Shown here one piece after another: positions 30,186 through 46,353 of a stretch of 64,000 nucleotides of DNA (the stretch's first letter is position 1; every line of letters begins with the position of its first letter). Made by a program: the position numbers and the translations under genes. Source of the DNA: Persicimonas caeni (GTDB taxonomy: Bacteria > Myxococcota_A > Bradymonadia > Bradymonadales > Bradymonadaceae). Under the pieces are notes generated by a model. That model was not told the origin of the DNA. It made no database searches and saw nothing but the letters and a program-made list of their open reading frames with translations. The stretch covers positions 1,054,001-1,118,000 of the forward strand of contig NZ_CP041186.1 of NCBI RefSeq assembly GCF_006517175.1. Reading direction: 5' to 3'.

Positions 30186-30353
30186 TTGAGAACCAGTCAA
30201 CCCATCAATTTTGGAGTCGAGTGCATTGGTCGCACAGAGCGCCTCGCCCAACCCGAAGATTTTGGCAAATATCAATTGGTCGCCCGGCTGGCCCACGGCC
30301 GCATGGGGGGACTTCTACAGGCCAAGGTGCAGGAGGTAGAGGGGCCCGAGTAG
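30186..30353 (+). pseudogene. 5' fragment of a Ser/Thr kinase gene, cut by the left duplicated arm
   Basis: From a TTG at 30186 the frame reads 55 codons and includes DFGKYQLVARLAHGRMGG, the glycine-loop start of a Hanks-type kinase, then QAKVQEVEGPE. The similarity breaks at 30344, exactly where sequence identical to the inverted arm begins, and a stop follows at 30351. No invariant Lys, HRD or DFG remains. It is distinct from the kinase in the arms (different residues around the glycine loop). The rest of this gene is not in the window. The start codon is uncertain. Confidence 0.7.
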
Positions 30354-32316
30354 GTTGCCGCTGCGTCGCACTTTTGGGCGACCAAATCACGCAACGCTTG
30401 AAGGTGATTGCCGCTCCACACCACTTCGCCGATAAACTCGCCGGGGTTGTGGCCTTGGCGCTTCAAGTAGGCGCGCGGCAGGAAGTTACCGGTGGTCGAG
30501 TTGCGGTCTGTGAAACAAAAGGTTTTTGCCCTCCAGGTCGGCCAACGAGCTTGACTTGGGAGTCCATGCGGGTTAGCAAGAGGGCGTCGCTCGACGTCGA
30601 GCCGCCGAACTGGCGAATGGCGAGCAGGCGGATCTTGGGCTCCGCTTTCTTGGTCTGCACGTACAGCAGGGGAGGCAAGATGGCGATGTCGTAGTCGCCG
30701 TTACGCACCCCCTTGGACAACTCCTCATAGCTGCTCGTGACTTCCATCGGCACCGGACGCCCGAGCTCTTTCTCCATATACGCTTGGATGGGCTGAATCT
30801 CCTTTTCGAGCACATCGGGCGTCGCGATCGGAGCCCAGCCGACGCGGATGGGATCGCCGATGAGAATGGGAGACGCCTTTTCCTCACCGAGCAGCTTTTG
30901 GCCCAGCTCACTTCCCTTGATTTGAGGCCAGAAGAAGAAAGCTGCGGCGATGACGCTTGCCACGGTCACGCCGGCGATCAACGCCAGCGTCTTGCCGTTC
31001 GAGTCATCAGCGGCGCGACCGCCGATGTTCGGCGGCGGGGCTCCCATATCGATGCTCTGCTCATCCATCGTCGCGGTCGTCCGCAGATCGGACTGGGCGC
31101 TTGGATGAGAGCCGGACTGCGAGTGGGAGTCTCCTGCGTCGAACGCCCGCACCCCGGAGGGGAGGCTGCCGCTTCCCGACGGCGAGCGGCGCAACTCGGG
31201 GAATGAACCACTGTCAGCAGGACGATCGACGACCGTGGCGATATGATCTTGGCCCTGTCGCTGGGAGCCGCTGACTGCCGAGCGCGAGTCCGAGCCCGTC
31301 ACGTGAATCAGGTTGCGCTTTTCGTTCGAGGTCAGGGAGCGCTCCAGGGCGTCGTGCATCGTCGCCTGACGCTCGGCCAACTCCTCGCCGGCGATCTTTT
31401 CGAGAAACTCCGCCAGAACGTCTTCGCCGAACGCAAGCCCGCTGGCACGTGCGGCTTGGATAAGCGCACGGCGCATCTGCTCGGCGGTCTGATAGCGTTG
31501 GTCGCGATCTTTGACCAAGGCCTTGAGCACCACGCGATCGACCACATCGGGCACCGCGGGATTGTAGGTGCTCGGAGGCTCGGGTTGCTCTTGGACGACC
31601 GCCCGCATCATGTCGAGATCTTTTTCGCGCTTGAAGAGGCGACGATCGGTCAGCGCCTCCCACAGCACGATGCCGAGTGCAAAGATGTCCGCTCGCCGGT
31701 CGAGCTTCAGCCCCTTGCACTGTTCGGGAGACATGTAGGCGAATTTGCCTTTGAGGTGACCGGAGTGAGTCGCCTCGACGCCCTGGGATGCCTTGGCCAC
31801 GCCAAAGTCGAGTACTTTGACGAATCCTTCGGTGGTGCACATCAGGTTGTGCGGGGAGACGTCTCGGTGAATGAGCTCGAGGGGGCTGCCCTCCAAGTCA
31901 CGAAGCTCGTGGGCAGCGTGCAGGCCTCGACAAGCTTGGTCGACGACTGACAGAGCCACCTGCACCGGCAGGGAGGTGCCGTCGCGCTCGGCGAGCACCT
32001 GCATTTCACGCACCGTGCTGCCGTGGATATACTCCATGGCAATATAGTAGTCGCCATTCTCTTCGCCGAGCTCGAAGATTTGGACGACATTGGGGTGGTT
32101 GAGTCTGGCGATGATCCTTGCTTCCCGAAGGAACATGTCGATAAAGGAAGGATCGTCGGCCAGATGAGGCAGGATGCGCTTGATGACGACGAGGCGCTCC
32201 AGGCCGGCAAGGCCACGCTCGCGGGCAAGAAACAGCTCGGCCATGCCCCCGGTGGCCAGTTTGGTCACCAGTTCGTACTTGCCAAGCATCACGGGAGCTG
32301 TATTCGTGTCAGACAC
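30344..32316 (-). pseudogene. Truncated, frameshifted copy of the Ser/Thr kinase-PhnD fusion
   Basis: Identical to the intact gene at 41809-44109 for its first 587 codons (kinase domain, membrane helix and half of the binding domain). Two extra T (30551-30552 and 30523-30527) then shift the frame within the PhnD-like domain, and a stop falls at 30463. Even without them the copy lacks the last 110 codons because the arm ends at 30344. If expressed, it would give an intact kinase and membrane segment with a broken sensor. Confidence 0.9.
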
Positions 32317-32431
32317 GCACGCCTCGGTGTCGTTCGCGGCTCCAGAGCAGTCGAGTTGCAGAGAGTCTCATGGCCATCGTAGTCGGAATTGGCTCGTTCG
32401 CAAAGTATCCTCATGTTACAACGGAATCGCT

Positions 32432-32688
32432 ATGAAAGGATTTCATCGATCGTGGTGTTGAGTCTCGCTGTGAGCCTGAGTCTGGGCGCACTTGCGGGGT
32501 GCAAAGCCGAAGAATGTCGCCAGATGTCTCGCTGTTGCGAGGCGATCAAAGATGAGGAAGGAGTCGGCAGCGCCTGCGGCGAGATTGCTCAAGGCGTCAA
32601 AGACCCGGATACCTGCCGCACCATCCTGCGTACGGTCGAGGCGATGTACGAAGATCGCGAAGAAGATCTGCCGAAGGCGTGCCAGTAG
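32432..32688 (+). pseudogene. Frameshifted copy of the 85-aa Cys-rich lipoprotein gene
   Basis: Loss of one A in the run after the ATG (32435-32437, AAA instead of AAAA) turns the start MKRISS into MKGFHRSW and leaves the rest of the gene without its start. The body of the frame is identical to the intact copy at 41436-41693. Confidence 0.88.
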
Positions 32689-32744
32689 GTTGGGCGCACC
32701 TCTTTTGTCGTCTTGTTTTTTGTCGTCTTGGAAGTGAGTCAACG

Positions 32745-33680
32745 ATGTCTCAGGACGCCCTCAAAGCCGTCGACGTGCTCCAAGAAGTGTTGGCCGCGCA
32801 GCCTTGGCAGCCAACCGAAGATCCCGCTGTCGAGGGGCGCGGGCTGCGTGTGCGCGTGCACCTCGACGATCAGCGATCAGCATTGCTGTACGTGTGGGAC
32901 GAAGCACTGCTCGCCAAGCGGGCGGCGTGGGCTCATCGCCCCGAGCGTGCGGGGATGCTCTTTGCGGTGCCGGAGCTGATCGAATCCGGTCTAAAGTGGT
33001 GTCTCGTCGACGACGTCGACGGCATGCCGCTGACGACTTATCTCGAAAGGGAAGGGGTGGGTTCGGTGACCGAACTCGACGCGGAGCGAGCTCGGGGGTT
33101 GGCGCGTGAAGCTGGCGAGCTCGCGCGGAAGCTCCACGAGATCGAGGTTCCGCGCGAGTATGGCGACATGGTCGATCCCGATCGAGACGGCCATATTGGC
33201 CGCTGGAACACTTTCAACGGCTATATCGCTCACCGCCTCGAGCATTTCGCCGAGCAAATTCGCCATCGCGACCTCGACGAAGAGGTTCGGAGCCAGCTTC
33301 TGGCAACGATAGGAGACCTACGCGCGGAGCTTGCGGCATTTCACCCGCGCCACGCGCCCAGCCTCAACCACGGTGCCTTCGGCCCGCAGCACTTTTGGGT
33401 CGACGAGACAGGCCGTACGATCACCGCACTGACCGGATTCGACGGAGCGCGACTCCTCCCCCCCGAGGCCGATCTCGCCCGCCTGTTGTGGCTCGACGGC
33501 CTGGCTTGTGATGATGGATTGGTGCGCTCGTTCTACGCCGGATACGGTGCCGCCCGCACGATGGATCTGCAGCGCCGCGAGCGCTTCTACCGGCGCGTTG
33601 CCGCGCTCGAGGCGCTCGTCGAGTCGACGGGTCGGCGTAACTTGACGGACGCCGAGTTGGTGGCTCTCTCCTCGCCCTGA
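32745..33680 (+). CDS. Aminoglycoside-phosphotransferase-fold pseudokinase, copy 1 (left arm)
   Basis: This 311-aa frame is identical to the right-arm copy at 40444-41379 and is the only complete gene in the left arm without a frameshift. See that entry for domain content. The start ATG 32745 lies about 5 bp after a GGAAGTGAG stretch. Two copies of TTTGTCGTCTTG (about 32704-32730) sit directly upstream. If the left arm is real the cell has two identical copies in opposite orientation. Confidence 0.85.
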   Translation: MSQDALKAVDVLQEVLAAQPWQPTEDPAVEGRGLRVRVHLDDQRSALLYVWDEALLAKRAAWAHRPERAGMLFAVPELIESGLKWCLVDDVDGMPLTTYLEREGVGSVTELDAERARGLAREAGELARKLHEIEVPREYGDMVDPDRDGHIGRWNTFNGYIAHRLEHFAEQIRHRDLDEEVRSQLLATIGDLRAELAAFHPRHAPSLNHGAFGPQHFWVDETGRTITALTGFDGARLLPPEADLARLLWLDGLACDDGLVRSFYAGYGAARTMDLQRRERFYRRVAALEALVESTGRRNLTDAELVALSSP

Positions 33681-33683
33681 TGC

Positions 33684-35344
33684 TCAATCGGAAAACTTAC
33701 AGGTTCCTGGTCCACTTGCCTTCGTGATGCCATCGGCCGCGATGTGGAGGAGTACTTGCCCTCCCTTCGGGTGGTGGAGGCGAAGATGGTTGGTCCTCGG
33801 GTCATACGTCGCCGTTGCTGGTTCGTTGTAGTTGGTGTGCAACTCGAGCGCGCAGCGCGCGCGCCGTATCCTTCGGGGCACCTCGTCGTCAGCGTTCGAA
33901 TAGAGCGTGGACGATGGTCGCTGGCCCGGGGGTGCTCGACCGAGTCACGGTAAACCAAGTGTTGGGTGTGTTCGCACGCGCGAAGACTACTGGATCGTTC
34001 TCATTGACGGGGCGCAGGCGCTGCAGCTTTCCGGGATCCGATGCATCCGCGACTGCCACTTGCTCATCGTGGAACGGGAGAGCGAAGACGAGTCCTTTTT
34101 CAAGGCCCACCACGGCGGTGCGTGCGTGGTAGGATCGAGGTGCCGGGCGAATCTCCTCCCTGTCGATGCACGCCAAGACCTCAACCTTGACGGGCCACGG
34201 TCTGCACCACGGTCTTTCCGGGCGCTCTCCCACGGATCTCCTCGAGGTGGGCCGAGTTGTCGCAGCCCTAAAAGATACGCATCTCGGTTGAGGGCGTGCA
34301 TTGACTCGTTTCCGAGCAGCAAACCGTCCTACGGTGCCTCGGGCTCGGTAGTCGACGCCGCCGGATGGCGTGCTCGTATCGAAGAGGTGCAGATAGGTCT
34401 CGTCGGCGTCTGACGTGTAGGGATCGCTCGCCCAGGCCGCCAGCAGGGAGCTTCCCCACGACACTAGCTTCCAATTTCCTCCCAGAAATCCCTGCCTGGA
34501 GGTACTTCGCCCCGTGCGCAGGTCGATTGCATTCAGGATCAGCAGACTGGCATGTTTGACGCGGAGGGGCGCAGTGGATGGGCCGGGAAGGGCGATATCC
34601 TTGCAGCCGAGACGTTCGTGCTGCAGCTTGCCGCTACGTCGCGATTGGAGCACAGGAAGGGTCAACTGGCGATACTCATCGGCATTCTCACCCCAGTACG
34701 TGTCGAGCCACGCCTTGCGACGCTCGGCGCGCTGCTCGTAAGTCAGTCTCTTCTCTTTCTCGGTCGACAGCTTTCGTTTCTCATTGGCCGAGAGCTTTCG
34801 AAGTCGACCCTCAATCGGGGTGCTCGATGCGAACAGGAGGTGCCCGTCGCGCACATCGGCCCACGTTATGCGGCCCGGAGTCTCGACATGCGCGACCTGC
34901 CGAGCGTGGGTAGGAGACTCGAGTCGCAACAGATCGATACGGGAGCGAAAGGTCTGCCACCAGGGCCGCCCTGGCTTGTAGGACGTACGCTCGACATTCA
35001 CGAGCACCAGGTAATGGTGATCGCGGGTGAACGAACCCAACCAAGAGCCGACGAGCGAGTACGGCGCCGTCCAGATGCTGACTTTGTCGGTTTGCTGCGC
35101 TCCCGTCTCTTCTGACTCGAGAACAATGCTCGAACCGTCAATGCCGTAGGGTCGGTCGGCGACGACAGTTTGGGATACACCTGCGAACGGCCACAGTGCG
35201 ATGCTCGAGCTCTTCTCTGCGGATGTCGGCGGTTGCCAGGCGTCGTCCCGGCGGGGAGCGAGAAATGGGGCCGCCATCTGGGTGTCGGTGTGCCGGAGAA
35301 TGAGGAGTTGCCCCCGACTCGGACGGTAGGGCCCGCTCAGCATT
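33684..35344 (-). pseudogene. 5'-truncated, multiply frameshifted copy of the 633-aa lipoprotein gene
   Basis: The copy starts inside the native gene, at the codons for MLSGPYRPSRG, and so lacks the signal peptide and lipobox. Three one-base insertions (34328, 34229, 34183) shift the frame and restore it 50 codons later with one extra residue. A fourth (33909) shifts it again and stops it at 33889, about 70 codons early. The intact parent is at 38539-40440. Confidence 0.9.
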
Positions 35345-36886
35345 GTTAACGACCGAGCCGAGTGCACCGTCGACGACGATTGCCCCTCGGGGCCGTACGT
35401 GTGCGTCGATCAGGTGTGCAAGCGTGAAGGCTTCGACGCAGGCGACATCGGCAACGACTCCGGCGACCAAGATACTGGCGTGCCTGAGGACACCTTTGAC
35501 GACGCCTCCGACGACGAGGGGCCCCCGAGCGTCGAGAGTGTCACGCCTGCAGCCGGCGCCACCGACGTCGCGACGGATACCACCATCGAGATCGTCTTCA
35601 GCGAGCCGATGGATCCCTTCACCATCAACTTCTACTCGATCGTGCTGCGCGACACGAATAACCGCGAAGTGGACATCACGGTCACCTACGACGCGGACGC
35701 ACAAACCGCGACCGTGACGCCCCAGATCAATCTGCAGCCGGCTGCTTCCTATCGACTGCGGGTCGAGTCCCTCGCCCGAGACATGGCGGGCAACGGCCTG
35801 GACCCCGACTTCGAGGCGACCTTCTATACCGCCTACGACGAGCCGGCCGAGCATACGACCCTGGCGGAGACGTTCGCGCCGGTCATCTACCAGGGCATCG
35901 CCGATTCCCAGGACAGCGGACCCAACGGCGATATCCCGACGCTGCTCGACTTCGACGACAACCTGTCGGCGGCCGACAACGGCGCCAACTCGCGCCGAAG
36001 CGGCACCACGACCGAGGCCCACGTCTATTATCACGTGACCGAGTCGGCTCAGTACTACTTCCTGCACTACATCCTGTACTACCCGTCTCGACTCGACGTC
36101 GACGATCAGTCGCGCGCCGAGCACGATTTCGCCGGTGCGGTCTTCGTGGTCGACAAGTCCGACAACAGCCTGCTGTTGGTCGAAGGAGTCAGCTTGCTCG
36201 ACTCCGGCGAGGTCACCTCGGCCTACAAGCCCGACGGCAGCCCCGTGTCGCTCCCCGGCGGCAATATCGGCAACATGACGCTGGCCAGCTTCGGCGCCGA
36301 CAAGCTCGAAGACGGCACCCACTACCCGATGTACGTGCCCGGTGGCGTCCACGAGACGTGCAATTGGCATAAATCGGGCAGCAACTCGCGTTGTCTGCAC
36401 AACCCGGGGCAGTTCCGCGGCACCGACGGCGGTGGCGTGGTGATGCGTCACGGCGACACCGCCCAGAGCTACGACGAGGCCACCGAAAACCAGGATTCGG
36501 GTCACCTGGAAATGACCTACAAGCTGGTTCCGCTGGCTTCGACCGTCTGGGCTTATCGCGGCAGCTACGGCAGCGGAGGGCTCTTCGAGATTCCGTTCAT
36601 CTACGAGCCCACGGGCACCGATCGCCCCATCGGCTTCAATCCGCAGGACGCCCACGTGTTGCCGCGGCGACTGCAGAGCGGCGCCACCGAAAACTTCGGC
36701 CGCACGCCCTTTTTCTGGCTGCCGAGCCCCGGCGAAGACAATCACGGTCAGTGGCTCATGGACCCGGTGTACATCTTGCCCAACCGGTATAACTTCGGAG
36801 AGTCGGTCACGACCGAGTACTGCTACAACTTCTTTTTCGACATCGATAACCGCTCCAGCTCCATCGAGGGCTGCGGTGGCAACTAA
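35345..36886 (+). pseudogene. Secreted Ig-like (Big_5-type) protein lacking its 5' end
   Basis: The frame is open from the inner end of the left arm (35345) for about 513 codons, but no start or signal peptide remains; a GTG at 35399 lies inside the domain. The visible start is Cys-rich (ECTVDDDCPSGPYVCVDQVCK), followed by an acidic linker and one SbsA/Big_5 Ig-like domain (SVTPAAGATDVATDTTIEIVF to about ARDMAGNGL). The remaining 370 residues are beta-rich with HVYYHVTESAQYYFLHYILYYPSR and AEHDFAGAVFVV, faintly like the DUF946/Vps62 group; I would not assign it. The missing N-terminus should be a lipoprotein or Sec signal. The last 11 bp overlap the next gene. The core is intact, so loss came from the junction. 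Confidence 0.75.
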
Positions 36887-38538: not shown

Positions 38539-40440
38539 ATGATCGCTGGACGTCGAATGCCGAATCCGCTGCGTGACGTCGCTCTTTTCGTCGTGCTCGC
38601 GGCGCTTTCGACCGCTTGCGGCAATTCGCAGTCGTATCGTTCGTCCCCGCCCCTACCACCGATTGAAGTCTCGACACCATCGCTTTCGGCAGAGCAACGC
38701 GCAGCGTCGCAAGCCATGGCGCTGCGGCGAGCTCGGGGCTGCGACGATGTGGCCCGGGCACTCGCCAATATCGACGCCGAACAAATGCTGAGCGGGCCCT
38801 ACCGTCCGAGTCGGGGGCAACTCCTCATTCTCCGGCACACCGACACCCAGATGGCGGCCCCATTTCTCGCTCCCCGCCGGGACGACGCCTGGCAACCGCC
38901 GACATCCGCAGAGAAGAGCTCGAGCATCGCACTGTGGCCGTTCGCAGGTGTATCCCAAACTGTCGTCGCCGACCGACCCTACGGCATTGACGGTTCGAGC
39001 ATTGTTCTCGAGTCAGAAGAGACGGGAGCGCAGCAAACCGACAAAGTCAGCATCTGGACGGCGCCGTACTCGCTCGTCGGCTCTTGGTTGGGTTCGTTCA
39101 CCCGCGATCACCATTACCTGGTGCTCGTGAATGTCGAGCGTACGTCCTACAAGCCAGGGCGGCCCTGGTGGCAGACCTTTCGCTCCCGTATCGATCTGTT
39201 GCGACTCGAGTCTCCTACCCACGCTCGGCAGGTCGCGCATGTCGAGACTCCGGGCCGCATAACGTGGGCCGATGTGCGCGACGGGCACCTCCTGTTCGCA
39301 TCGAGCACCCCGATTGAGGGTCGACTTCGAAAGCTCTCGGCCAATGAGAAACGAAAGCTGTCGACCGAGAAAGAGAAGAGACTGACTTACGAGCAGCGCG
39401 CCGAGCGTCGCAAGGCGTGGCTCGACACGTACTGGGGTGAGAATGCCGATGAGTATCGCCAGTTGACCCTTCCTGTGCTCCAATCGCGACGTAGCGGCAA
39501 GCTGCAGCACGAACGTCTCGGCTGCAAGGATATCGCCCTTCCCGGCCCATCCACTGCGCCCCTCCGCGTCAAACATGCCAGTCTGCTGATCCTGAATGCA
39601 ATCGACCTGCGCACGGGGCGAAGTACCTCCAGGCAGGGATTTCTGGGAGGAAATTGGAAGCTAGTGTCGTGGGGAAGCTCCCTGCTGGCGGCCTGGGCGA
39701 GCGATCCCTACACGTCAGACGCCGACGAGACCTATCTGCACCTCTTCGATACGAGCACGCCATCCGGCGGCGTCGACTACCGAGCCCGAGGCACCGTAGA
39801 CGGTTTGCTGCTCGGAAACGAGTCAATGCACGCCCTCAACCGAGATGCGTATCTTTTAGGGCTGCGACAACTCGGCCCACCTCGAGGAGATCCGTGGAGA
39901 GCGCCCGGAAAGACCGTGGTGCAGACCGTGGCCCGTCAAGGTGAGGTCTTGGCGTGCATCGACAGGGAGGAGATTCGCCCGGCACCTCGATCCTACCACG
40001 CACGCACCGCCGTGGTGGGCCTTGAAAAAGGACTCGTCTTCGCTCTCCCGTTCCACGATGAGCAAGTGGCAGTCGCGGATGCATCGGATCCCGGAAAGCT
40101 GCAGCGCCTGCGCCCCGTCAATGAGAACGATCCAGTAGTCTTCGCGCGTGCGAACACACCCAACACTTGGTTTACCGTGACTCGGTCGAGCACCCCCGGG
40201 CCAGCGACCATCGTCACGCTCTATTCGAACGCTGACGACGAGGTGCCCCGAAGGATACGGCGCGCGCGCTGCGCGCTCGAGTTGCACACCAACTACAACG
40301 AACCAGCAACGGCGACGTATGACCCGAGGACCAACCATCTTCGCCTCCACCACCCGAAGGGAGGGCAAGTACTCCTCCACATCGCGGCCGATGGCATCAC
40401 GAAGGCAAGTGGACCAGGAACCTGTAAGTTTTCCGATTGA
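38539..40440 (+). CDS. Lipoprotein of 633 aa, beta-rich, family unknown
   Basis: The start is ATG 38539 or ATG 38557 (MPNPLRDVALFVVLAALSTAC), either giving a lipobox STAC. The mature protein is beta-rich with repeated hydrophobic strands separated by polar turns (GQLLILRH, DGHLLFASST, LVSWGSSLLAAWASD, YLHLFDTSTP, GLVFALPFHDEQVAVAD), suggestive of a propeller similar to the secreted Beta_propel group. A basic helical insertion (about residues 270-310, Lys/Arg/Glu-rich) interrupts it. It starts 16 bp after moeA. Its first 82 codons are outside the duplicated arm and the rest inside, showing that the right arm is the native copy. It ends 3 bp from the convergent pseudokinase gene. Confidence 0.75.
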   Translation: MIAGRRMPNPLRDVALFVVLAALSTACGNSQSYRSSPPLPPIEVSTPSLSAEQRAASQAMALRRARGCDDVARALANIDAEQMLSGPYRPSRGQLLILRHTDTQMAAPFLAPRRDDAWQPPTSAEKSSSIALWPFAGVSQTVVADRPYGIDGSSIVLESEETGAQQTDKVSIWTAPYSLVGSWLGSFTRDHHYLVLVNVERTSYKPGRPWWQTFRSRIDLLRLESPTHARQVAHVETPGRITWADVRDGHLLFASSTPIEGRLRKLSANEKRKLSTEKEKRLTYEQRAERRKAWLDTYWGENADEYRQLTLPVLQSRRSGKLQHERLGCKDIALPGPSTAPLRVKHASLLILNAIDLRTGRSTSRQGFLGGNWKLVSWGSSLLAAWASDPYTSDADETYLHLFDTSTPSGGVDYRARGTVDGLLLGNESMHALNRDAYLLGLRQLGPPRGDPWRAPGKTVVQTVARQGEVLACIDREEIRPAPRSYHARTAVVGLEKGLVFALPFHDEQVAVADASDPGKLQRLRPVNENDPVVFARANTPNTWFTVTRSSTPGPATIVTLYSNADDEVPRRIRRARCALELHTNYNEPATATYDPRTNHLRLHHPKGGQVLLHIAADGITKASGPGTCKFSD

Positions 40441-40443
40441 GCA

Positions 40444-41379
40444 TCAGGGCGAGGAGAGAGCCACCAACTCGGCGTCCGTCAAGTTACGCCGACCCGTCGA
40501 CTCGACGAGCGCCTCGAGCGCGGCAACGCGCCGGTAGAAGCGCTCGCGGCGCTGCAGATCCATCGTGCGGGCGGCACCGTATCCGGCGTAGAACGAGCGC
40601 ACCAATCCATCATCACAAGCCAGGCCGTCGAGCCACAACAGGCGGGCGAGATCGGCCTCGGGGGGGAGGAGTCGCGCTCCGTCGAATCCGGTCAGTGCGG
40701 TGATCGTACGGCCTGTCTCGTCGACCCAAAAGTGCTGCGGGCCGAAGGCACCGTGGTTGAGGCTGGGCGCGTGGCGCGGGTGAAATGCCGCAAGCTCCGC
40801 GCGTAGGTCTCCTATCGTTGCCAGAAGCTGGCTCCGAACCTCTTCGTCGAGGTCGCGATGGCGAATTTGCTCGGCGAAATGCTCGAGGCGGTGAGCGATA
40901 TAGCCGTTGAAAGTGTTCCAGCGGCCAATATGGCCGTCTCGATCGGGATCGACCATGTCGCCATACTCGCGCGGAACCTCGATCTCGTGGAGCTTCCGCG
41001 CGAGCTCGCCAGCTTCACGCGCCAACCCCCGAGCTCGCTCCGCGTCGAGTTCGGTCACCGAACCCACCCCTTCCCTTTCGAGATAAGTCGTCAGCGGCAT
41101 GCCGTCGACGTCGTCGACGAGACACCACTTTAGACCGGATTCGATCAGCTCCGGCACCGCAAAGAGCATCCCCGCACGCTCGGGGCGATGAGCCCACGCC
41201 GCCCGCTTGGCGAGCAGTGCTTCGTCCCACACGTACAGCAATGCTGATCGCTGATCGTCGAGGTGCACGCGCACACGCAGCCCGCGCCCCTCGACAGCGG
41301 GATCTTCGGTTGGCTGCCAAGGCTGCGCGGCCAACACTTCTTGGAGCACGTCGACGGCTTTGAGGGCGTCCTGAGACAT
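40444..41379 (-). CDS. Aminoglycoside-phosphotransferase-fold pseudokinase, copy 2 (right arm)
   Basis: The 311-aa protein has the C-lobe pattern of APH/choline-kinase-like enzymes: AREAGELARKLHEIEVPREYGDM, then LNHGAFGPQHFWVDETGRTITALTGFDGA and PPEADLARLLWLDG. Against the usual LxHGDxxxxNxxVD...IDFD the catalytic Asp is Ala211, the Asn is His and the metal-binding Asp is Gly, so all three catalytic positions are lost. The N-lobe (residues 1-110) has Lys58 near the position of the ATP lysine but the pattern is weak. It is probably a binding or scaffold protein. It is 56 bp downstream of the small lipoprotein gene and probably cotranscribed with it. Confidence 0.75.
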   Translation of the reverse strand: MSQDALKAVDVLQEVLAAQPWQPTEDPAVEGRGLRVRVHLDDQRSALLYVWDEALLAKRAAWAHRPERAGMLFAVPELIESGLKWCLVDDVDGMPLTTYLEREGVGSVTELDAERARGLAREAGELARKLHEIEVPREYGDMVDPDRDGHIGRWNTFNGYIAHRLEHFAEQIRHRDLDEEVRSQLLATIGDLRAELAAFHPRHAPSLNHGAFGPQHFWVDETGRTITALTGFDGARLLPPEADLARLLWLDGLACDDGLVRSFYAGYGAARTMDLQRRERFYRRVAALEALVESTGRRNLTDAELVALSSP

Positions 41380-41435
41380 CGTTGACTCACTTCCAAGACG
41401 ACAAAAAACAAGACGACAAAAGAGGTGCGCCCAAC

Positions 41436-41693
41436 CTACTGGCACGCCTTCGGCAGATCTTCTTCGCGATCTTCGTACATCGCCTCGACCGTACGCAGGA
41501 TGGTGCGGCAGGTATCCGGGTCTTTGACGCCTTGAGCAATCTCGCCGCAGGCGCTGCCGACTCCTTCCTCATCTTTGATCGCCTCGCAACAGCGAGACAT
41601 CTGGCGACATTCTTCGGCTTTGCACCCCGCAAGTGCGCCCAGACTCAGGCTCACAGCGAGACTCAACACCACGATCGATGAAATCCTTTTCAT
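41436..41693 (-). CDS. Small Cys-rich lipoprotein
   Basis: The 85-aa precursor MKRISSIVVLSLAVSLSLGA ends in lipobox LAGC (Cys24). The mature 62 residues have six further Cys (EEC, RCC, SAC, DTC, KAC) and an even mix of charged residues, so a disulfide-bonded, exported helical domain is likely. No family is recognised. It is divergent from the kinase-PhnD gene across 115 bp and upstream of the pseudokinase gene, so coregulation with the kinase is possible. Confidence 0.78.
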   Translation of the reverse strand: MKRISSIVVLSLAVSLSLGALAGCKAEECRQMSRCCEAIKDEEGVGSACGEIAQGVKDPDTCRTILRTVEAMYEDREEDLPKACQ

Positions 41694-41808
41694 AGCGATT
41701 CCGTTGTAACATGAGGATACTTTGCGAACGAGCCAATTCCGACTACGATGGCCATGAGACTCTCTGCAACTCGACTGCTCTGGAGCCGCGAACGACACCG
41801 AGGCGTGC

Positions 41809-44109
41809 GTGTCTGACACGAATACAGCTCCCGTGATGCTTGGCAAGTACGAACTGGTGACCAAACTGGCCACCGGGGGCATGGCCGAGCTGTTTCTTGC
41901 CCGCGAGCGTGGCCTTGCCGGCCTGGAGCGCCTCGTCGTCATCAAGCGCATCCTGCCTCATCTGGCCGACGATCCTTCCTTTATCGACATGTTCCTTCGG
42001 GAAGCAAGGATCATCGCCAGACTCAACCACCCCAATGTCGTCCAAATCTTCGAGCTCGGCGAAGAGAATGGCGACTACTATATTGCCATGGAGTATATCC
42101 ACGGCAGCACGGTGCGTGAAATGCAGGTGCTCGCCGAGCGCGACGGCACCTCCCTGCCGGTGCAGGTGGCTCTGTCAGTCGTCGACCAAGCTTGTCGAGG
42201 CCTGCACGCTGCCCACGAGCTTCGTGACTTGGAGGGCAGCCCCCTCGAGCTCATTCACCGAGACGTCTCCCCGCACAACCTGATGTGCACCACCGAAGGA
42301 TTCGTCAAAGTACTCGACTTTGGCGTGGCCAAGGCATCCCAGGGCGTCGAGGCGACTCACTCCGGTCACCTCAAAGGCAAATTCGCCTACATGTCTCCCG
42401 AACAGTGCAAGGGGCTGAAGCTCGACCGGCGAGCGGACATCTTTGCACTCGGCATCGTGCTGTGGGAGGCGCTGACCGATCGTCGCCTCTTCAAGCGCGA
42501 AAAAGATCTCGACATGATGCGGGCGGTCGTCCAAGAGCAACCCGAGCCTCCGAGCACCTACAATCCCGCGGTGCCCGATGTGGTCGATCGCGTGGTGCTC
42601 AAGGCCTTGGTCAAAGATCGCGACCAACGCTATCAGACCGCCGAGCAGATGCGCCGTGCGCTTATCCAAGCCGCACGTGCCAGCGGGCTTGCGTTCGGCG
42701 AAGACGTTCTGGCGGAGTTTCTCGAAAAGATCGCCGGCGAGGAGTTGGCCGAGCGTCAGGCGACGATGCACGACGCCCTGGAGCGCTCCCTGACCTCGAA
42801 CGAAAAGCGCAACCTGATTCACGTGACGGGCTCGGACTCGCGCTCGGCAGTCAGCGGCTCCCAGCGACAGGGCCAAGATCATATCGCCACGGTCGTCGAT
42901 CGTCCTGCTGACAGTGGTTCATTCCCCGAGTTGCGCCGCTCGCCGTCGGGAAGCGGCAGCCTCCCCTCCGGGGTGCGGGCGTTCGACGCAGGAGACTCCC
43001 ACTCGCAGTCCGGCTCTCATCCAAGCGCCCAGTCCGATCTGCGGACGACCGCGACGATGGATGAGCAGAGCATCGATATGGGAGCCCCGCCGCCGAACAT
43101 CGGCGGTCGCGCCGCTGATGACTCGAACGGCAAGACGCTGGCGTTGATCGCCGGCGTGACCGTGGCAAGCGTCATCGCCGCAGCTTTCTTCTTCTGGCCT
43201 CAAATCAAGGGAAGTGAGCTGGGCCAAAAGCTGCTCGGTGAGGAAAAGGCGTCTCCCATTCTCATCGGCGATCCCATCCGCGTCGGCTGGGCTCCGATCG
43301 CGACGCCCGATGTGCTCGAAAAGGAGATTCAGCCCATCCAAGCGTATATGGAGAAAGAGCTCGGGCGTCCGGTGCCGATGGAAGTCACGAGCAGCTATGA
43401 GGAGTTGTCCAAGGGGGTGCGTAACGGCGACTACGACATCGCCATCTTGCCTCCCCTGCTGTACGTGCAGACCAAGAAAGCGGAGCCCAAGATCCGCCTG
43501 CTCGCCATTCGCCAGTTCGGCGGCTCGACGTCGAGCGACGCCCTCTTGCTAACCCGCATGGACTCCCAAGTCAGCTCGTTGGCCGACCTGGAGGGCAAAA
43601 CCTTTTGTTTCACAGACCGCAACTCGACCACCGGTAACTTCCTGCCGCGCGCCTACTTGAAGCGCCAAGGCCACAACCCCGGCGAGTTTATCGGCGAAGT
43701 GGTGTGGAGCGGCAATCACCTTCAAGCGTTGCGTGATTTGGTCGCCCAAAAGTGCGACGCAGCGGCAACCTACTCGGGCTCGTTTCTGACCGCAGGAAAA
43801 TTCGGCGTCCCGGTCGGAAAGATCCGCCAACTCGCGATCACGGGCCACGTGCCCCAAGATTCGGTGGTCGCAGCCCCGGACACCCCTGACTCCGTCGCCA
43901 AGGATCTGGAGCGTGTGCTGCTCGACTTCGATCCCAAAGAGGACGCCGGGGTCGAAACCGTCGGGGAAATCCTGCAGATCACCGGCTTTTCGGACGGCTC
44001 CGACGAGGCGTTCGATGATCTACGCGATGCGGTGGAAAATAACGACGAGCTGCCCGAACGTCTGGCGCCCAAGGAAGACGGCGCTCAAGCCGAAAAGGGT
44101 AAAGACTAA
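41809..44109 (+). CDS. Receptor-like Ser/Thr kinase fused to a PhnD-like periplasmic binding domain
   Basis: The 766-aa protein starts at GTG 41809. Residues 10-280 are a complete Hanks-type kinase: glycine loop ATGGMAE, VVIK (Lys46), HRDVSPHN (His150, Asp152), DFG (Asp170) and MSPEQ. Residues 290-440 are a polar Ser/Arg/Gly-rich juxtamembrane stretch. A single helix lies at 444-464. Residues 485-740 match the phosphonate/phosphite-binding PhnD family: RVGWAPIATPDVLEKEIQPI, LGRPVPM, NGDYDIAILPPLLY, SLADLEGKTFCFTDRNSTTGN and VVWSGNHLQAL. The likely topology is a cytoplasmic kinase with an extracytoplasmic oxyanion or small-ligand sensor. All catalytic residues are present. Its stop is 3 bp from the convergent HD-GYP gene. 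Confidence 0.9.
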   Translation: MSDTNTAPVMLGKYELVTKLATGGMAELFLARERGLAGLERLVVIKRILPHLADDPSFIDMFLREARIIARLNHPNVVQIFELGEENGDYYIAMEYIHGSTVREMQVLAERDGTSLPVQVALSVVDQACRGLHAAHELRDLEGSPLELIHRDVSPHNLMCTTEGFVKVLDFGVAKASQGVEATHSGHLKGKFAYMSPEQCKGLKLDRRADIFALGIVLWEALTDRRLFKREKDLDMMRAVVQEQPEPPSTYNPAVPDVVDRVVLKALVKDRDQRYQTAEQMRRALIQAARASGLAFGEDVLAEFLEKIAGEELAERQATMHDALERSLTSNEKRNLIHVTGSDSRSAVSGSQRQGQDHIATVVDRPADSGSFPELRRSPSGSGSLPSGVRAFDAGDSHSQSGSHPSAQSDLRTTATMDEQSIDMGAPPPNIGGRAADDSNGKTLALIAGVTVASVIAAAFFFWPQIKGSELGQKLLGEEKASPILIGDPIRVGWAPIATPDVLEKEIQPIQAYMEKELGRPVPMEVTSSYEELSKGVRNGDYDIAILPPLLYVQTKKAEPKIRLLAIRQFGGSTSSDALLLTRMDSQVSSLADLEGKTFCFTDRNSTTGNFLPRAYLKRQGHNPGEFIGEVVWSGNHLQALRDLVAQKCDAAATYSGSFLTAGKFGVPVGKIRQLAITGHVPQDSVVAAPDTPDSVAKDLERVLLDFDPKEDAGVETVGEILQITGFSDGSDEAFDDLRDAVENNDELPERLAPKEDGAQAEKGKD

Positions 44110-44112
44110 GCT

Positions 44113-46122
44113 CTAAAAATGCCCCGGGATCTTGTCGATGATCGCCGGCAGTACCCGGTCGGCGAATACCTCAACCAACTCCCCGTCGAGCTTCTTGGCT
44201 TCGGCCTCCGCTCGCAAAATCGCTACGCCCCGCTCGGGCGTGGCCGCCTTGCGGTACGGACGATCAGCTGCCGTCACCGCGTCGAAGATGTCGGCGATGG
44301 TGAGCATGCGTACCTGCGGAATGATCTCGTCGGCGTCTAGCCCCTGCGGGTACCCGCTGCCGTCGAGCTTTTCGTGGTGCGCACCGGCAATACAGGGTAC
44401 TTGCTTGAGCTCGTCGCCCCACGGAATGCGTTCCAGGTAATCTTGGCTACGCTGGGCGTGGGAGCGCATATCTTCCCACTCCTGCTCGTTGAGTGTCCCC
44501 TTCTTGATGGTGAGGTTCTCGATCTCCTCGGCGGTCAAATACGGATGCCGCTGGCCACAGGGGCTGAGGAAGAAACGCTCGCCGAGCTTCTCGACCCGCT
44601 CGATCTTCTCGTCCTCCAGAAAGGGCGCCGCGGCCACCTCGTATAACCAGTTGAGCGTGCCGTCGAGCTCATCGCAGAAGGATTGATAGCGCGCTTCGAG
44701 CTGATGAAACTTGGTCGGAGGCATCGGCTCTCGGCTGTTGCCAAAATGGCCCCGGATCATGCGCTGGTACTCGAGGGCCTTGATGGTCTCGAAGCGTTGG
44801 CCAATCAGGTCGAGATGCAACTCGGGCAGCCGCTTTCCCTTGCGCAGCACGCTCTCACGCACCGCAATTTTGCCGAAGTCGTGCAACAGAGCAGCATAGC
44901 GTAGTTCTTTTAGTTCCGATCGCTGCAGATAGATGTCTTTGAGGCTGCCCACCTCGATCCCGTTGACCGCCTGGGCAAGTTCGAGGGTGTAGTCCGCCAC
45001 CCGCTCGCTGTGGCCAGCGGTGGTGGGATCGCGAGCTTCGATCGCGTTGACGCTAGCAGCCACGAAGCTCTCGAACATCTCGACGATATTCTCCGAGAGC
45101 TTGGCGCGCTCGAGCGCGAACGCCACGTTGGAGGCAAAGACGCTAAAGAGGTTGAGATCTTGCTTCGAAAAGAGGCTTCCGAGTCCGCGCGTGTCGACCT
45201 GCATCACTCCCAGCAGGGAGCGCTGACCGATCAGCGGAGCGCACAGCGCCGCGGTGATTTGAGCGTCGAGGATCGATTGGCTGACGTTATTGCCCAGCGA
45301 GTCTTTGACGAAGAGCACGCTCTCGCGCGTTTCGATGACCTGACGCAAAATACTGGTGCTCAGGATCGGCTCTTCGCTCTCATCTTCGCTTCCGGGAAGT
45401 TCTCCGCGCACTCGCGAGACAAAGGGGCTCGTCTGGCTGACGTCTTCGGGGTCGTCGGCCAAGGTGATCGCGAAGAAATTCGCTGCCGGAAAGGCCTGGA
45501 AGACCGCATCGACGATCAGGTCGAGGATCTCGTCGAGCTTGGTTTGGCTGTTCAGTTCGCCGGCGAGGCGAAACAAGATGGCCAAGCGATCATCGCTGCT
45601 GGCGATGTCTCGGGGCAACGAGCGTACCCCGCTCATCGCGGTGGTGATCATCGTCTCGCGCGGCCCGGAGACCCCGGCGGCTTGTTGGTGGAGAATCTCT
45701 TCGGTGGGTCCCGAAACCTCGTCAATCTCGACTTTCTCGGTACGCAGCTCCTCTTCACCCGCGCCCAACTCGACGCGGATCAAGGTGCAGCCGACCTGGA
45801 TCTCGGCGCCATCAGCCAAGCGAACCTTGCGCGCCGAATCGTGGTCTTGCAAATGCAACGAGACGTCGTCGACCAACACCAGCGAGCCATGCCGACTCTT
45901 CAGGTCGCGATAGATCAGCTGACCACCTTCGAAACAGAGCTCGCCGTGCTCGTTGGAGACAAATCCATCCGACAACATGAACTCATTGCGAGAGCCGCGG
46001 CCCACGCCGACTCGCTCCCGGTGCGTAAACGAGCGGCTCATCCCAGCGTCAGGGCCGCTCAGCACGGTCATCTTGACGACTTGCCGCTCCCCAGTTGTTA
46101 CGTGCGTGTCTGTCATGCTCAT
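44113..46122 (-). CDS. FHA-GAF-HD-GYP protein, probable c-di-GMP phosphodiesterase with insertion
   Basis: About 669 aa from ATG 46122 (the frame continues 13 codons upstream). The N-terminal FHA domain (about residues 17-115) has VGRGSRNEF and DLKSRHGSLV, which bind phosphothreonine. A GAF domain follows (about 180-340). The HD-GYP domain starts at GHSERVADYTLELA, has LLHDFGK (His414, Asp415), HHEKLDGSGYP (GYP at 590) and IADIFDAVTAADRPYRKA. About 108 residues rich in Phe, Leu and Glu are inserted between HD and the GTLNEQEW segment, which normally follow each other closely. Catalytic residues are kept. The FHA domain and convergence with a Ser/Thr kinase gene suggest phospho-dependent regulation of c-di-GMP turnover; this is inference. 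Confidence 0.85.
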   Translation of the reverse strand: MSMTDTHVTTGERQVVKMTVLSGPDAGMSRSFTHRERVGVGRGSRNEFMLSDGFVSNEHGELCFEGGQLIYRDLKSRHGSLVLVDDVSLHLQDHDSARKVRLADGAEIQVGCTLIRVELGAGEEELRTEKVEIDEVSGPTEEILHQQAAGVSGPRETMITTAMSGVRSLPRDIASSDDRLAILFRLAGELNSQTKLDEILDLIVDAVFQAFPAANFFAITLADDPEDVSQTSPFVSRVRGELPGSEDESEEPILSTSILRQVIETRESVLFVKDSLGNNVSQSILDAQITAALCAPLIGQRSLLGVMQVDTRGLGSLFSKQDLNLFSVFASNVAFALERAKLSENIVEMFESFVAASVNAIEARDPTTAGHSERVADYTLELAQAVNGIEVGSLKDIYLQRSELKELRYAALLHDFGKIAVRESVLRKGKRLPELHLDLIGQRFETIKALEYQRMIRGHFGNSREPMPPTKFHQLEARYQSFCDELDGTLNWLYEVAAAPFLEDEKIERVEKLGERFFLSPCGQRHPYLTAEEIENLTIKKGTLNEQEWEDMRSHAQRSQDYLERIPWGDELKQVPCIAGAHHEKLDGSGYPQGLDADEIIPQVRMLTIADIFDAVTAADRPYRKAATPERGVAILRAEAEAKKLDGELVEVFADRVLPAIIDKIPGHF

Positions 46123-46353
46123 GGTTGGATCGGGGGTGCTACAGGAGCGGTAGTCTAACACACGGCCTTATGCGTCGCCATGGAGAGAGCAACTTCGATG
46201 CTCGACAACAGCCTGTGGGCACACTAACGGGGCCCACGTCACGGGCACTCGCCCCGATTTCTTGTAGTGCGTCGTAGTTTTCGCACAATAGAAGGACGGG
46301 CTGATAACATGCGAGCCTGTCAGATGTTCACCGCGCCTGTCGGCGGAGATGTA

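What the first reader, a model, noticed from the sequence alone, without database searches (positions are those of the whole stretch)
41809..44109. Ser/Thr kinase fused to a PhnD-like binding domain
A complete Hanks-type kinase is joined through one membrane helix to a phosphonate/phosphite-binding type domain. ABC-transporter binding proteins normally deliver ligands to permeases; here the domain would be the sensor of a receptor kinase, which suggests direct sensing of phosphorus oxyanions or a similar small ligand.
Basis: partly seen in the sequence, partly recalled or inferred. Interest (0 to 1): 0.75.

Follow-up and report, generated by a model that had tools for sequence, protein, structure and literature searches.

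The report
PhnD-type sensor fused to Ser/Thr kinase
This bacterium (a relative of the predatory Bradymonadales) carries a membrane protein kinase whose outer part is a binding-protein fold of the phosphonate/phosphite type, a real and conserved receptor design that gives a rare, testable handle on what switches on a bacterial Ser/Thr kinase.

Summary
ORF 41809-44109 (+, 766 aa) is an intact Hanks-type kinase (residues 14-281), a long linker, one membrane helix (444-462) and a complete PhnD-type (PF12974) domain (492-734). AlphaFold2 of 481-766 (pLDDT 90.8) matches ArrX, PtxB, HtxB, AioX and PhnD at Z 26-29. The joined gene is seen in 15 genomes of the family, and more distant fusions in six further families of the phylum. 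The oxyanion half-site (Tyr, Ser-Thr-Thr, His) is kept, but the specificity half differs from PhnD, PtxB and AioX, so a phosphorus ligand is possible, not shown. Kinase-fused domains form one clade and carry a Cys pair (C600/C649) absent from 22 other relatives examined. The closest unfused relatives are encoded beside a membrane diguanylate cyclase (18 of 19); the kinase sits beside an FHA-GAF-HD-GYP gene in 13 loci. Best model: a periplasmic small-anion receptor kinase, perhaps feeding c-di-GMP control. SBP-kinase fusions as such are known (MSMEG_1200; PMC6069109); I found no description of a PhnD-type one. New variant of a known kind.

The parts
41809..44109 (+). kinase-TM-PhnD-type receptor gene, 766 aa
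   Evidence: open frame; full-length orthologues 46-62% identical
41848..42651 (+). Hanks-type Ser/Thr kinase domain, residues 14-281, all catalytic motifs present
   Evidence: Pfam PF00069 E 3.2e-33; motifs
42889..42906 (+). linker motif T361-V-V-D-R-P, candidate phospho-Thr site for an FHA domain (Asp/Glu at +3); hypothesis only
   Evidence: T..[DE][RK]P in the linker of 8 of 14 orthologues scanned, chance per linker 0.2-3.4% by shuffling, 0 of 14 distant fusions
43138..43194 (+). single transmembrane helix, residues 444-462
   Evidence: hydropathy scan
43282..44010 (+). PhnD-type type II periplasmic binding domain, residues 492-734
   Evidence: PF12974 E 2.4e-51; AF2 pLDDT 90.8; PDB matches
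43396..43398 (+). Y530 = Te_PtxB Y55 / AioX Y88, oxyanion ligand
   Evidence: alignments with residues named in PMC5700983 and PMC5908839; Tyr in 54 of 55 rows
43606..43608 (+). C600, first of an invariant Cys pair in kinase-fused domains
43624..43632 (+). S606-T607-T608 = STS motif of PtxB/PhnD
43717..43719 (+). H637 = Te_PtxB H160, oxyanion ligand
43753..43755 (+). C649, second of the invariant Cys pair
43858..43860 (+). D684, at the cap position (Tyr in PtxB, Asp205 in E. coli PhnD)
   Evidence: PMC5700983
44113..46161 (-). FHA-GAF-HD-GYP protein (putative c-di-GMP phosphodiesterase), proposed partner; FHA and HD-GYP motifs intact
   Evidence: Pfam; motifs conserved in 10 orthologues; next to the kinase in 13 loci
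41436..41693 (-). small Cys-rich lipoprotein gene, divergent neighbour, conserved in some relatives; role unknown
   Evidence: blastp 41-48% in three loci
30344..35347 (-). second, inverted copy of 38780-43779 holding kinase residues 1 to about 657, frameshifted and truncated; probably non-functional or an assembly artefact
   Evidence: 0 substitutions, 8 single-base indels over 5 kb

Best explanation
It is a single-pass receptor Ser/Thr kinase. Shown by sequence and prediction: a kinase with a complete active site, one membrane helix, and a two-lobed PhnD-type binding domain with an intact oxyanion half-site. Inferred: kinase in the cytoplasm, sensor in the periplasm; a small anion (a tetrahedral oxyanion or a molecule carrying such a group) closes the two lobes, which changes the pairing of receptor chains and so kinase autophosphorylation, as proposed for other single-pass bacterial kinases. 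Inferred and weaker (about 0.35): phospho-Thr on the linker or on the partner recruits or regulates the neighbouring FHA-GAF-HD-GYP protein and so changes c-di-GMP breakdown. The invariant Cys pair probably forms a disulfide that stiffens lobe 2.
For: Domains and fold; motifs; one helix, with more Lys/Arg on the kinase side in most orthologues; fusion conserved in 15 same-family genomes and six further families; SBP domains of fusions are one side of a branch, support 98/97; oxyanion residues kept, Cys pair 31/31 in fusions and 0/22 elsewhere; nearest unfused relatives sit beside membrane GGDEF cyclases, 18 of 19, many with lipoprotein-type signal sequences, so the sensor subfamily is a signalling rather than a transport one; FHA-GAF-HD-GYP adjacent in 13 loci in two gene orders, and adjacent to another membrane kinase in 5 of 5 sister-family genomes; precedent: SBP GlnH controls kinase PknG, whose substrate is an FHA protein and whose phosphothreonines help dock it (PMC6069109, PMC9769921).
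Against: No ligand, phosphorylation or topology data. The FHA-GAF-HD-GYP orthologue also exists in genomes without the receptor (G003, G015, sister family), and lies apart from it in G031, so it is not an obligate partner. MoeA and MutY are conserved in the same neighbourhood too. The linker motif is missing in 6 of 14 orthologues, four of which have the neighbour. Distant fusions show no c-di-GMP or FHA gene in the stretches read (up to about 10 kb each side) except one GGDEF in L086. The window protein itself has equal Lys/Arg counts on both sides of the helix.
Confidence: 0.75

Rival explanations
1. The outer domain has lost small-molecule binding and serves as a structural or protein-docking module (for example for a periplasmic partner such as the neighbouring lipoprotein).
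For: The hinge Tyr and phosphite cap are lost; no transporter genes lie nearby; a small lipoprotein is divergently encoded and conserved in some loci.
Against: Tyr530, Ser606, His637 and (nearly always) Asp684 are kept across very divergent fusions, which a dead pocket would not need.
Confidence: 0.15
2. The receptor senses a specific phosphorus compound (phosphate, phosphite or a phosphonate) and controls phosphorus acquisition.
Against: E. coli PhnD Glu177, which holds the amino group, is Gly657; hinge Tyr is Ser; no phosphorus genes among the neighbours read; the genome's PhnD-PhnC-PhnE set is about 4.5 Mb away.
Confidence: 0.25
3. The receptor binds arsenic oxyanions like AioX/ArrX and controls a molybdoenzyme (MoeA is a conserved neighbour).
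For: Best structural match is the arsenate sensor ArrX; MoeA conserved nearby.
Against: The AioX-subfamily Cys106 falls on Pro548 here (alignments); hinge Tyr lost; no molybdoenzyme among the neighbours read.
Confidence: 0.05

Closest known systems
SBP kinases such as MSMEG_1200/StpK7 of Mycobacterium and Streptomyces (PMC6069109, which notes a further 260 SBP kinases in InterPro)
   Same: Kinase and solute-binding domain in one polypeptide
   Different: The NCBIfam StpK7 model matches only residues 10-292 of the window protein; its other half does not match, so the sensor is of another family
XAC2383-XAC2382 of Xanthomonas citri, a PhnD-like periplasmic protein paired with a diguanylate cyclase (pairing from my own knowledge; structure 5ub3 matched)
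   Same: PhnD-type periplasmic sensor used for signalling; Myxococcota sensor-GGDEF pairs are the nearest unfused relatives
   Different: Here the sensor is fused to a Ser/Thr kinase, has a Cys pair, and has no cyclase beside it
TtrS/ThsS sensor histidine kinases with PhnD-like domains (PMC5408782)
   Same: PF12974 sensor and kinase in one membrane protein
   Different: Histidine kinase with N-terminal sensor; here a Hanks kinase with C-terminal sensor
AioX/ArrX arsenic oxyanion sensors (PMC5908839)
   Same: Closest solved fold; SBP used as sensor
   Different: Separate SBP in a two-component system, Cys106 in the site
GlnH-GlnX-PknG (PMC6069109, PMC9769921)
   Same: Periplasmic SBP controls a Ser/Thr kinase whose substrate is an FHA protein
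   Different: Three proteins, amino-acid-type SBP, soluble kinase
PtxB/PhnD transport binding proteins (PMC5700983)
   Same: Fold and STS-H oxyanion motif
   Different: Free proteins serving an ABC permease; phosphite cap absent here

Membership tests
Hanks-type Ser/Thr kinase | Kinase domain with Gly loop, Lys, HRD, DFG, PE motifs | tested here: met
Hanks-type Ser/Thr kinase | Kinase activity | not testable with these tools
   needs protein
PF12974 type II periplasmic binding proteins | Two-lobed PhnD fold | tested here: met
Phosphite/phosphonate transport binding proteins (PtxB, PhnD) | Oxyanion motif Tyr + STS + His | tested here: met
   Y530, S606-T607-T608, H637 (residues from PMC5700983)
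Phosphite/phosphonate transport binding proteins (PtxB, PhnD) | Phosphite cap (Tyr208 with Asp22) or 2-AEP cap (Asp205, Thr14, Glu177) | tested here: not met
   D684, I497 (Thr in most orthologues), G657: phosphite cap absent, 2-AEP cap incomplete
Phosphite/phosphonate transport binding proteins (PtxB, PhnD) | Encoded with an ABC ATPase and permease | tested here: not met
   none among the neighbouring genes read; the genome's PhnC/PhnE-like genes lie beside another PhnD (L001)
AioX/ArrX sensors | Cys106-type ligand residue | tested here: not met
   Pro548 at this position by alignment
TtrS-type sensor kinases | HisKA and HATPase domains | tested here: not met
   no such domain in the Pfam scan
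SBP kinases in the broad sense | SBP and Ser/Thr kinase in one polypeptide | tested here: met
StpK7/MSMEG_1200 family | Homology over the sensor half | tested here: not met
   NF052427 matches positions 5-272 of 601 only, 174.8 bits against a cut-off of 900
SBP-diguanylate cyclase pairs (XAC2383 type) | Sensor paired with an adjacent GGDEF protein | tested here: not met
   no GGDEF gene beside the fused forms of the window's family; 18 of 19 unfused relatives have one

The most novel reading that the evidence does not exclude
In Myxococcota one periplasmic PhnD-type sensor lineage split into two c-di-GMP circuits of opposite sign: a separate sensor with a membrane GGDEF cyclase (synthesis), and a receptor Ser/Thr kinase that acts through phospho-Thr on an FHA-GAF-HD-GYP phosphodiesterase (breakdown). 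That would be a direct path from an outside small anion through a Hanks kinase to c-di-GMP.
Probability: 0.3. Interest if true: 0.75.

Novelty: new variant of a known kind. Interest (0 to 1): 0.52.

Why it matters
What activates bacterial Ser/Thr kinases is called an outstanding question (PMC6069109), and this genome alone has 138 kinase-domain matches. A kinase carrying a well-understood binding-protein fold lets the ligand be sought by standard binding assays on a soluble domain, and the neighbouring FHA-HD-GYP protein offers a defined output to test.

Tried and rejected
Chance or frame error: rejected by full-length orthologues. Transport role: no permease genes nearby. Arsenite sensor of the AioX kind: Cys106 position is Pro. 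Obligate pairing with the FHA-GAF-HD-GYP protein: rejected, since genomes without the receptor keep that protein and G031 keeps them apart. The APH-like neighbour as a conserved partner: weak, found at E 1e-20 in only 7 of 57 genomes. Repeated independent fusions: not supported, the fused sensors form one side of a branch, although the kinase halves of the deepest members differ strongly. Papers: no description of a PF12974-Hanks kinase fusion found; the library lacks most subscription journals. A plasmid search showed only transport-type binding proteins among the rows listed. Spread outside the phylum was not tested. The Cys-Cys distance could not be measured because model coordinates are not exposed.

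Full report
Observation. The frame at 41809-44109 (+) encodes 766 residues from a GTG start. Pfam finds a protein kinase at 14-281 (E 3.2e-33) and Phosphonate-bd PF12974 at 492-734 (E 2.4e-51), each over its curated cut-off. The kinase motifs are complete: ATGGMA loop, K46, E65, HRD 150-152, N157, DFG 170-172, SPE198. A hydropathy scan shows one membrane helix, 444-462. AlphaFold2 of 481-766 with 12 relatives gives pLDDT 90.8 and pTM 0.85. Against solved structures the best matches are ArrX (Z 28.6, 2.3 A over 253 residues), PtxB (28.2), AioX (27.1), HtxB (27.0) and PhnD (26.0).

Topology. There is no signal peptide before the kinase, which begins near residue 12. In most orthologues the side of the helix next to the kinase carries more Lys and Arg (for example 5 against 1, 6 against 0, 3 against 0), though the window protein itself has 2 and 2. 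A kinase needs ATP, and many unfused relatives of the outer domain carry lipoprotein-type signal sequences. I infer kinase inside, sensor outside.

Not an isolated oddity. The genome is a single 8.05-Mb contig; relatives include Lujinxingia vulgaris. From memory the size fits Persicimonas caeni, but the identity was not tested (only the name was looked up). Sensor domains of this close type (E 1e-79 or better, or nearly so) occur in 18 of the 21 same-family genomes. In 15 of them, the window's included, kinase and sensor are seen joined on one contig; in three the gene is cut by contig ends. Further fusions with the same order, kinase then helix then sensor, occur in families f6, f17, f18, f20, f44 and f51 of the same phylum.

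Binding site. PMC5700983 names the residues of PtxB and PhnD that hold the oxygens: a Tyr, the STS motif and a His. Alignment puts these at Y530, S606-T607-T608 and H637, and the Tyr, the first Ser and the His are kept in nearly every sensor compared. The other side of the pocket differs. The hinge Tyr of PtxB (and AioX Y131) is S576, followed by D577, in the close orthologues; the phosphite cap Tyr is D684, the residue type of E. coli PhnD Asp205; PhnD Glu177 is G657; PtxB Asp22 / PhnD Thr14 is I497 here and Thr in most orthologues. AioX Cys106 (PMC5908839) falls on P548. So the pocket keeps an oxyanion half-site with a specificity half of its own. [quoted passage not shown] The ligand stays open.

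Cys pair. C600 and C649 are both Cys in all 31 distinct kinase-fused rows, and neither is Cys in the 22 other rows; three of the 31 are contig-end fragments that I count as fused because they are orthologues or carry part of the kinase. C600 lies in a strand (residues 119-121 of the model) and C649 just before another (171-175). From the usual strand order of such lobes I infer neighbouring strands and a disulfide; the distance was not measured. Because the fused sensors form one clade (support 98/97), this is best read as one inherited change under strong later constraint, not repeated gain.

What the sensor lineage does elsewhere. Of the 19 closest unfused relatives examined in the phylum, 18 are encoded next to a protein with GGDEF; the five scanned with Pfam are HAMP-GGDEF, several overlapping the sensor gene by four bases. 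This is the arrangement I recall for XAC2383-XAC2382 of Xanthomonas, whose structure 5ub3 is among the matches. The genome's own transport-type PhnD (L001) sits with PhnC/PhnE-like genes far away. The lineage is thus mainly a signalling one.

Neighbourhood. Four bases beyond the kinase stop, on the other strand, ends a gene for an FHA-GAF-HD-GYP protein (44113-46161) with intact FHA Arg/Ser/Asn and HD-GYP motifs, conserved in ten orthologues but for single changes. It lies beside or within about 1.5 kb of the receptor in 13 loci, in two different gene orders. The genome has only five HD-GYP matches over the cut-off. In five sister-family genomes, in which no fused receptor was found, the same FHA protein lies about 1 kb from another membrane kinase. 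Against a strict pairing: G003 and G015 keep the FHA protein without the receptor, G031 keeps them apart, and MoeA and MutY are also conserved nearby.

Linker motif. The linker between kinase and helix is poorly conserved but often holds a T-x-x-[DE]-[RK]-P motif, T361 in the window. It occurs in 8 of 14 orthologues including the window, against 0.2-3.4% per linker after shuffling, and in none of 14 distant fusions. The pattern was noticed on these same sequences first, so the shuffle rates overstate the case. Asp at +3 from a phospho-Thr is a known FHA preference (own knowledge). This is a lead, not a result.

Mechanism. Shown: architecture, intact active site, intact oxyanion half-site, conservation, one clade. 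Inferred: anion binding closes the lobes and changes receptor pairing and autophosphorylation. Inferred and weaker: output through the FHA-GAF-HD-GYP protein to c-di-GMP. A precedent for each half exists: GlnH-GlnX-PknG couples an SBP to a Ser/Thr kinase that acts on an FHA protein (PMC6069109, PMC9769921), and PhnD-like domains drive histidine kinases such as TtrS (PMC5408782).

Known or new. PMC6069109 already states that kinase and SBP domains occur in one polypeptide (MSMEG_1200 and a further 260 in InterPro). The window protein shares only its kinase half with the StpK7 model. I found no paper on a PF12974-Hanks kinase receptor, within a library that lacks many journals. I file it as a new variant of a known kind.

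Second copy. Window 30344-35347 is an inverted copy of 38780-43779 with no substitution and eight single-base indels. It contains the kinase gene cut at about residue 657 and frameshifted near 590. Indels without substitutions suggest sequencing or assembly error on a very recent or false duplication. The main copy is intact and matches its orthologues, so the finding does not depend on this.

Noticed in passing
30344-35347 and 38780-43779: 5.0-kb inverted repeat with a 3.4-kb spacer, no substitutions, eight single-base indels; second copy of kinase, lipoprotein, APH-like and a beta-propeller-like gene, several frameshifted. Recent duplication or assembly artefact.
   Followed up: partly
about 30250-30350: Fragment reading ...EDFGKYQLVARLAHGRMGGLLQAKVQ, like the start of another Ser/Thr kinase, broken off just where the inverted copy begins.
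   Followed up: no
L069, L088, L090-L105: PhnD-type sensor genes, many with lipoprotein-type signal sequences, next to a GGDEF gene in many Myxococcota (18 of 19 examined): a widespread sensor-cyclase pair.
   Followed up: partly
L110-L114: In the sister family the FHA-GAF-HD-GYP orthologue lies about 1 kb from another membrane Ser/Thr kinase (two with a PEGA domain).
   Followed up: partly
L001 (G000:C1:5559899-5563618): Transport-type PhnD lipoprotein with PhnC- and PhnE-like genes in the same genome; a Tyr stands where the ligand His is expected.
   Followed up: no
41436-41693 (-): Small Cys-rich lipoprotein gene divergent from the kinase, conserved in several relatives, no Pfam match.
   Followed up: no
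L075, L076, L084: A MutY-like gene also lies next to the fusion kinase in a different family, an old conserved neighbourhood without an obvious functional reason.
   Followed up: no
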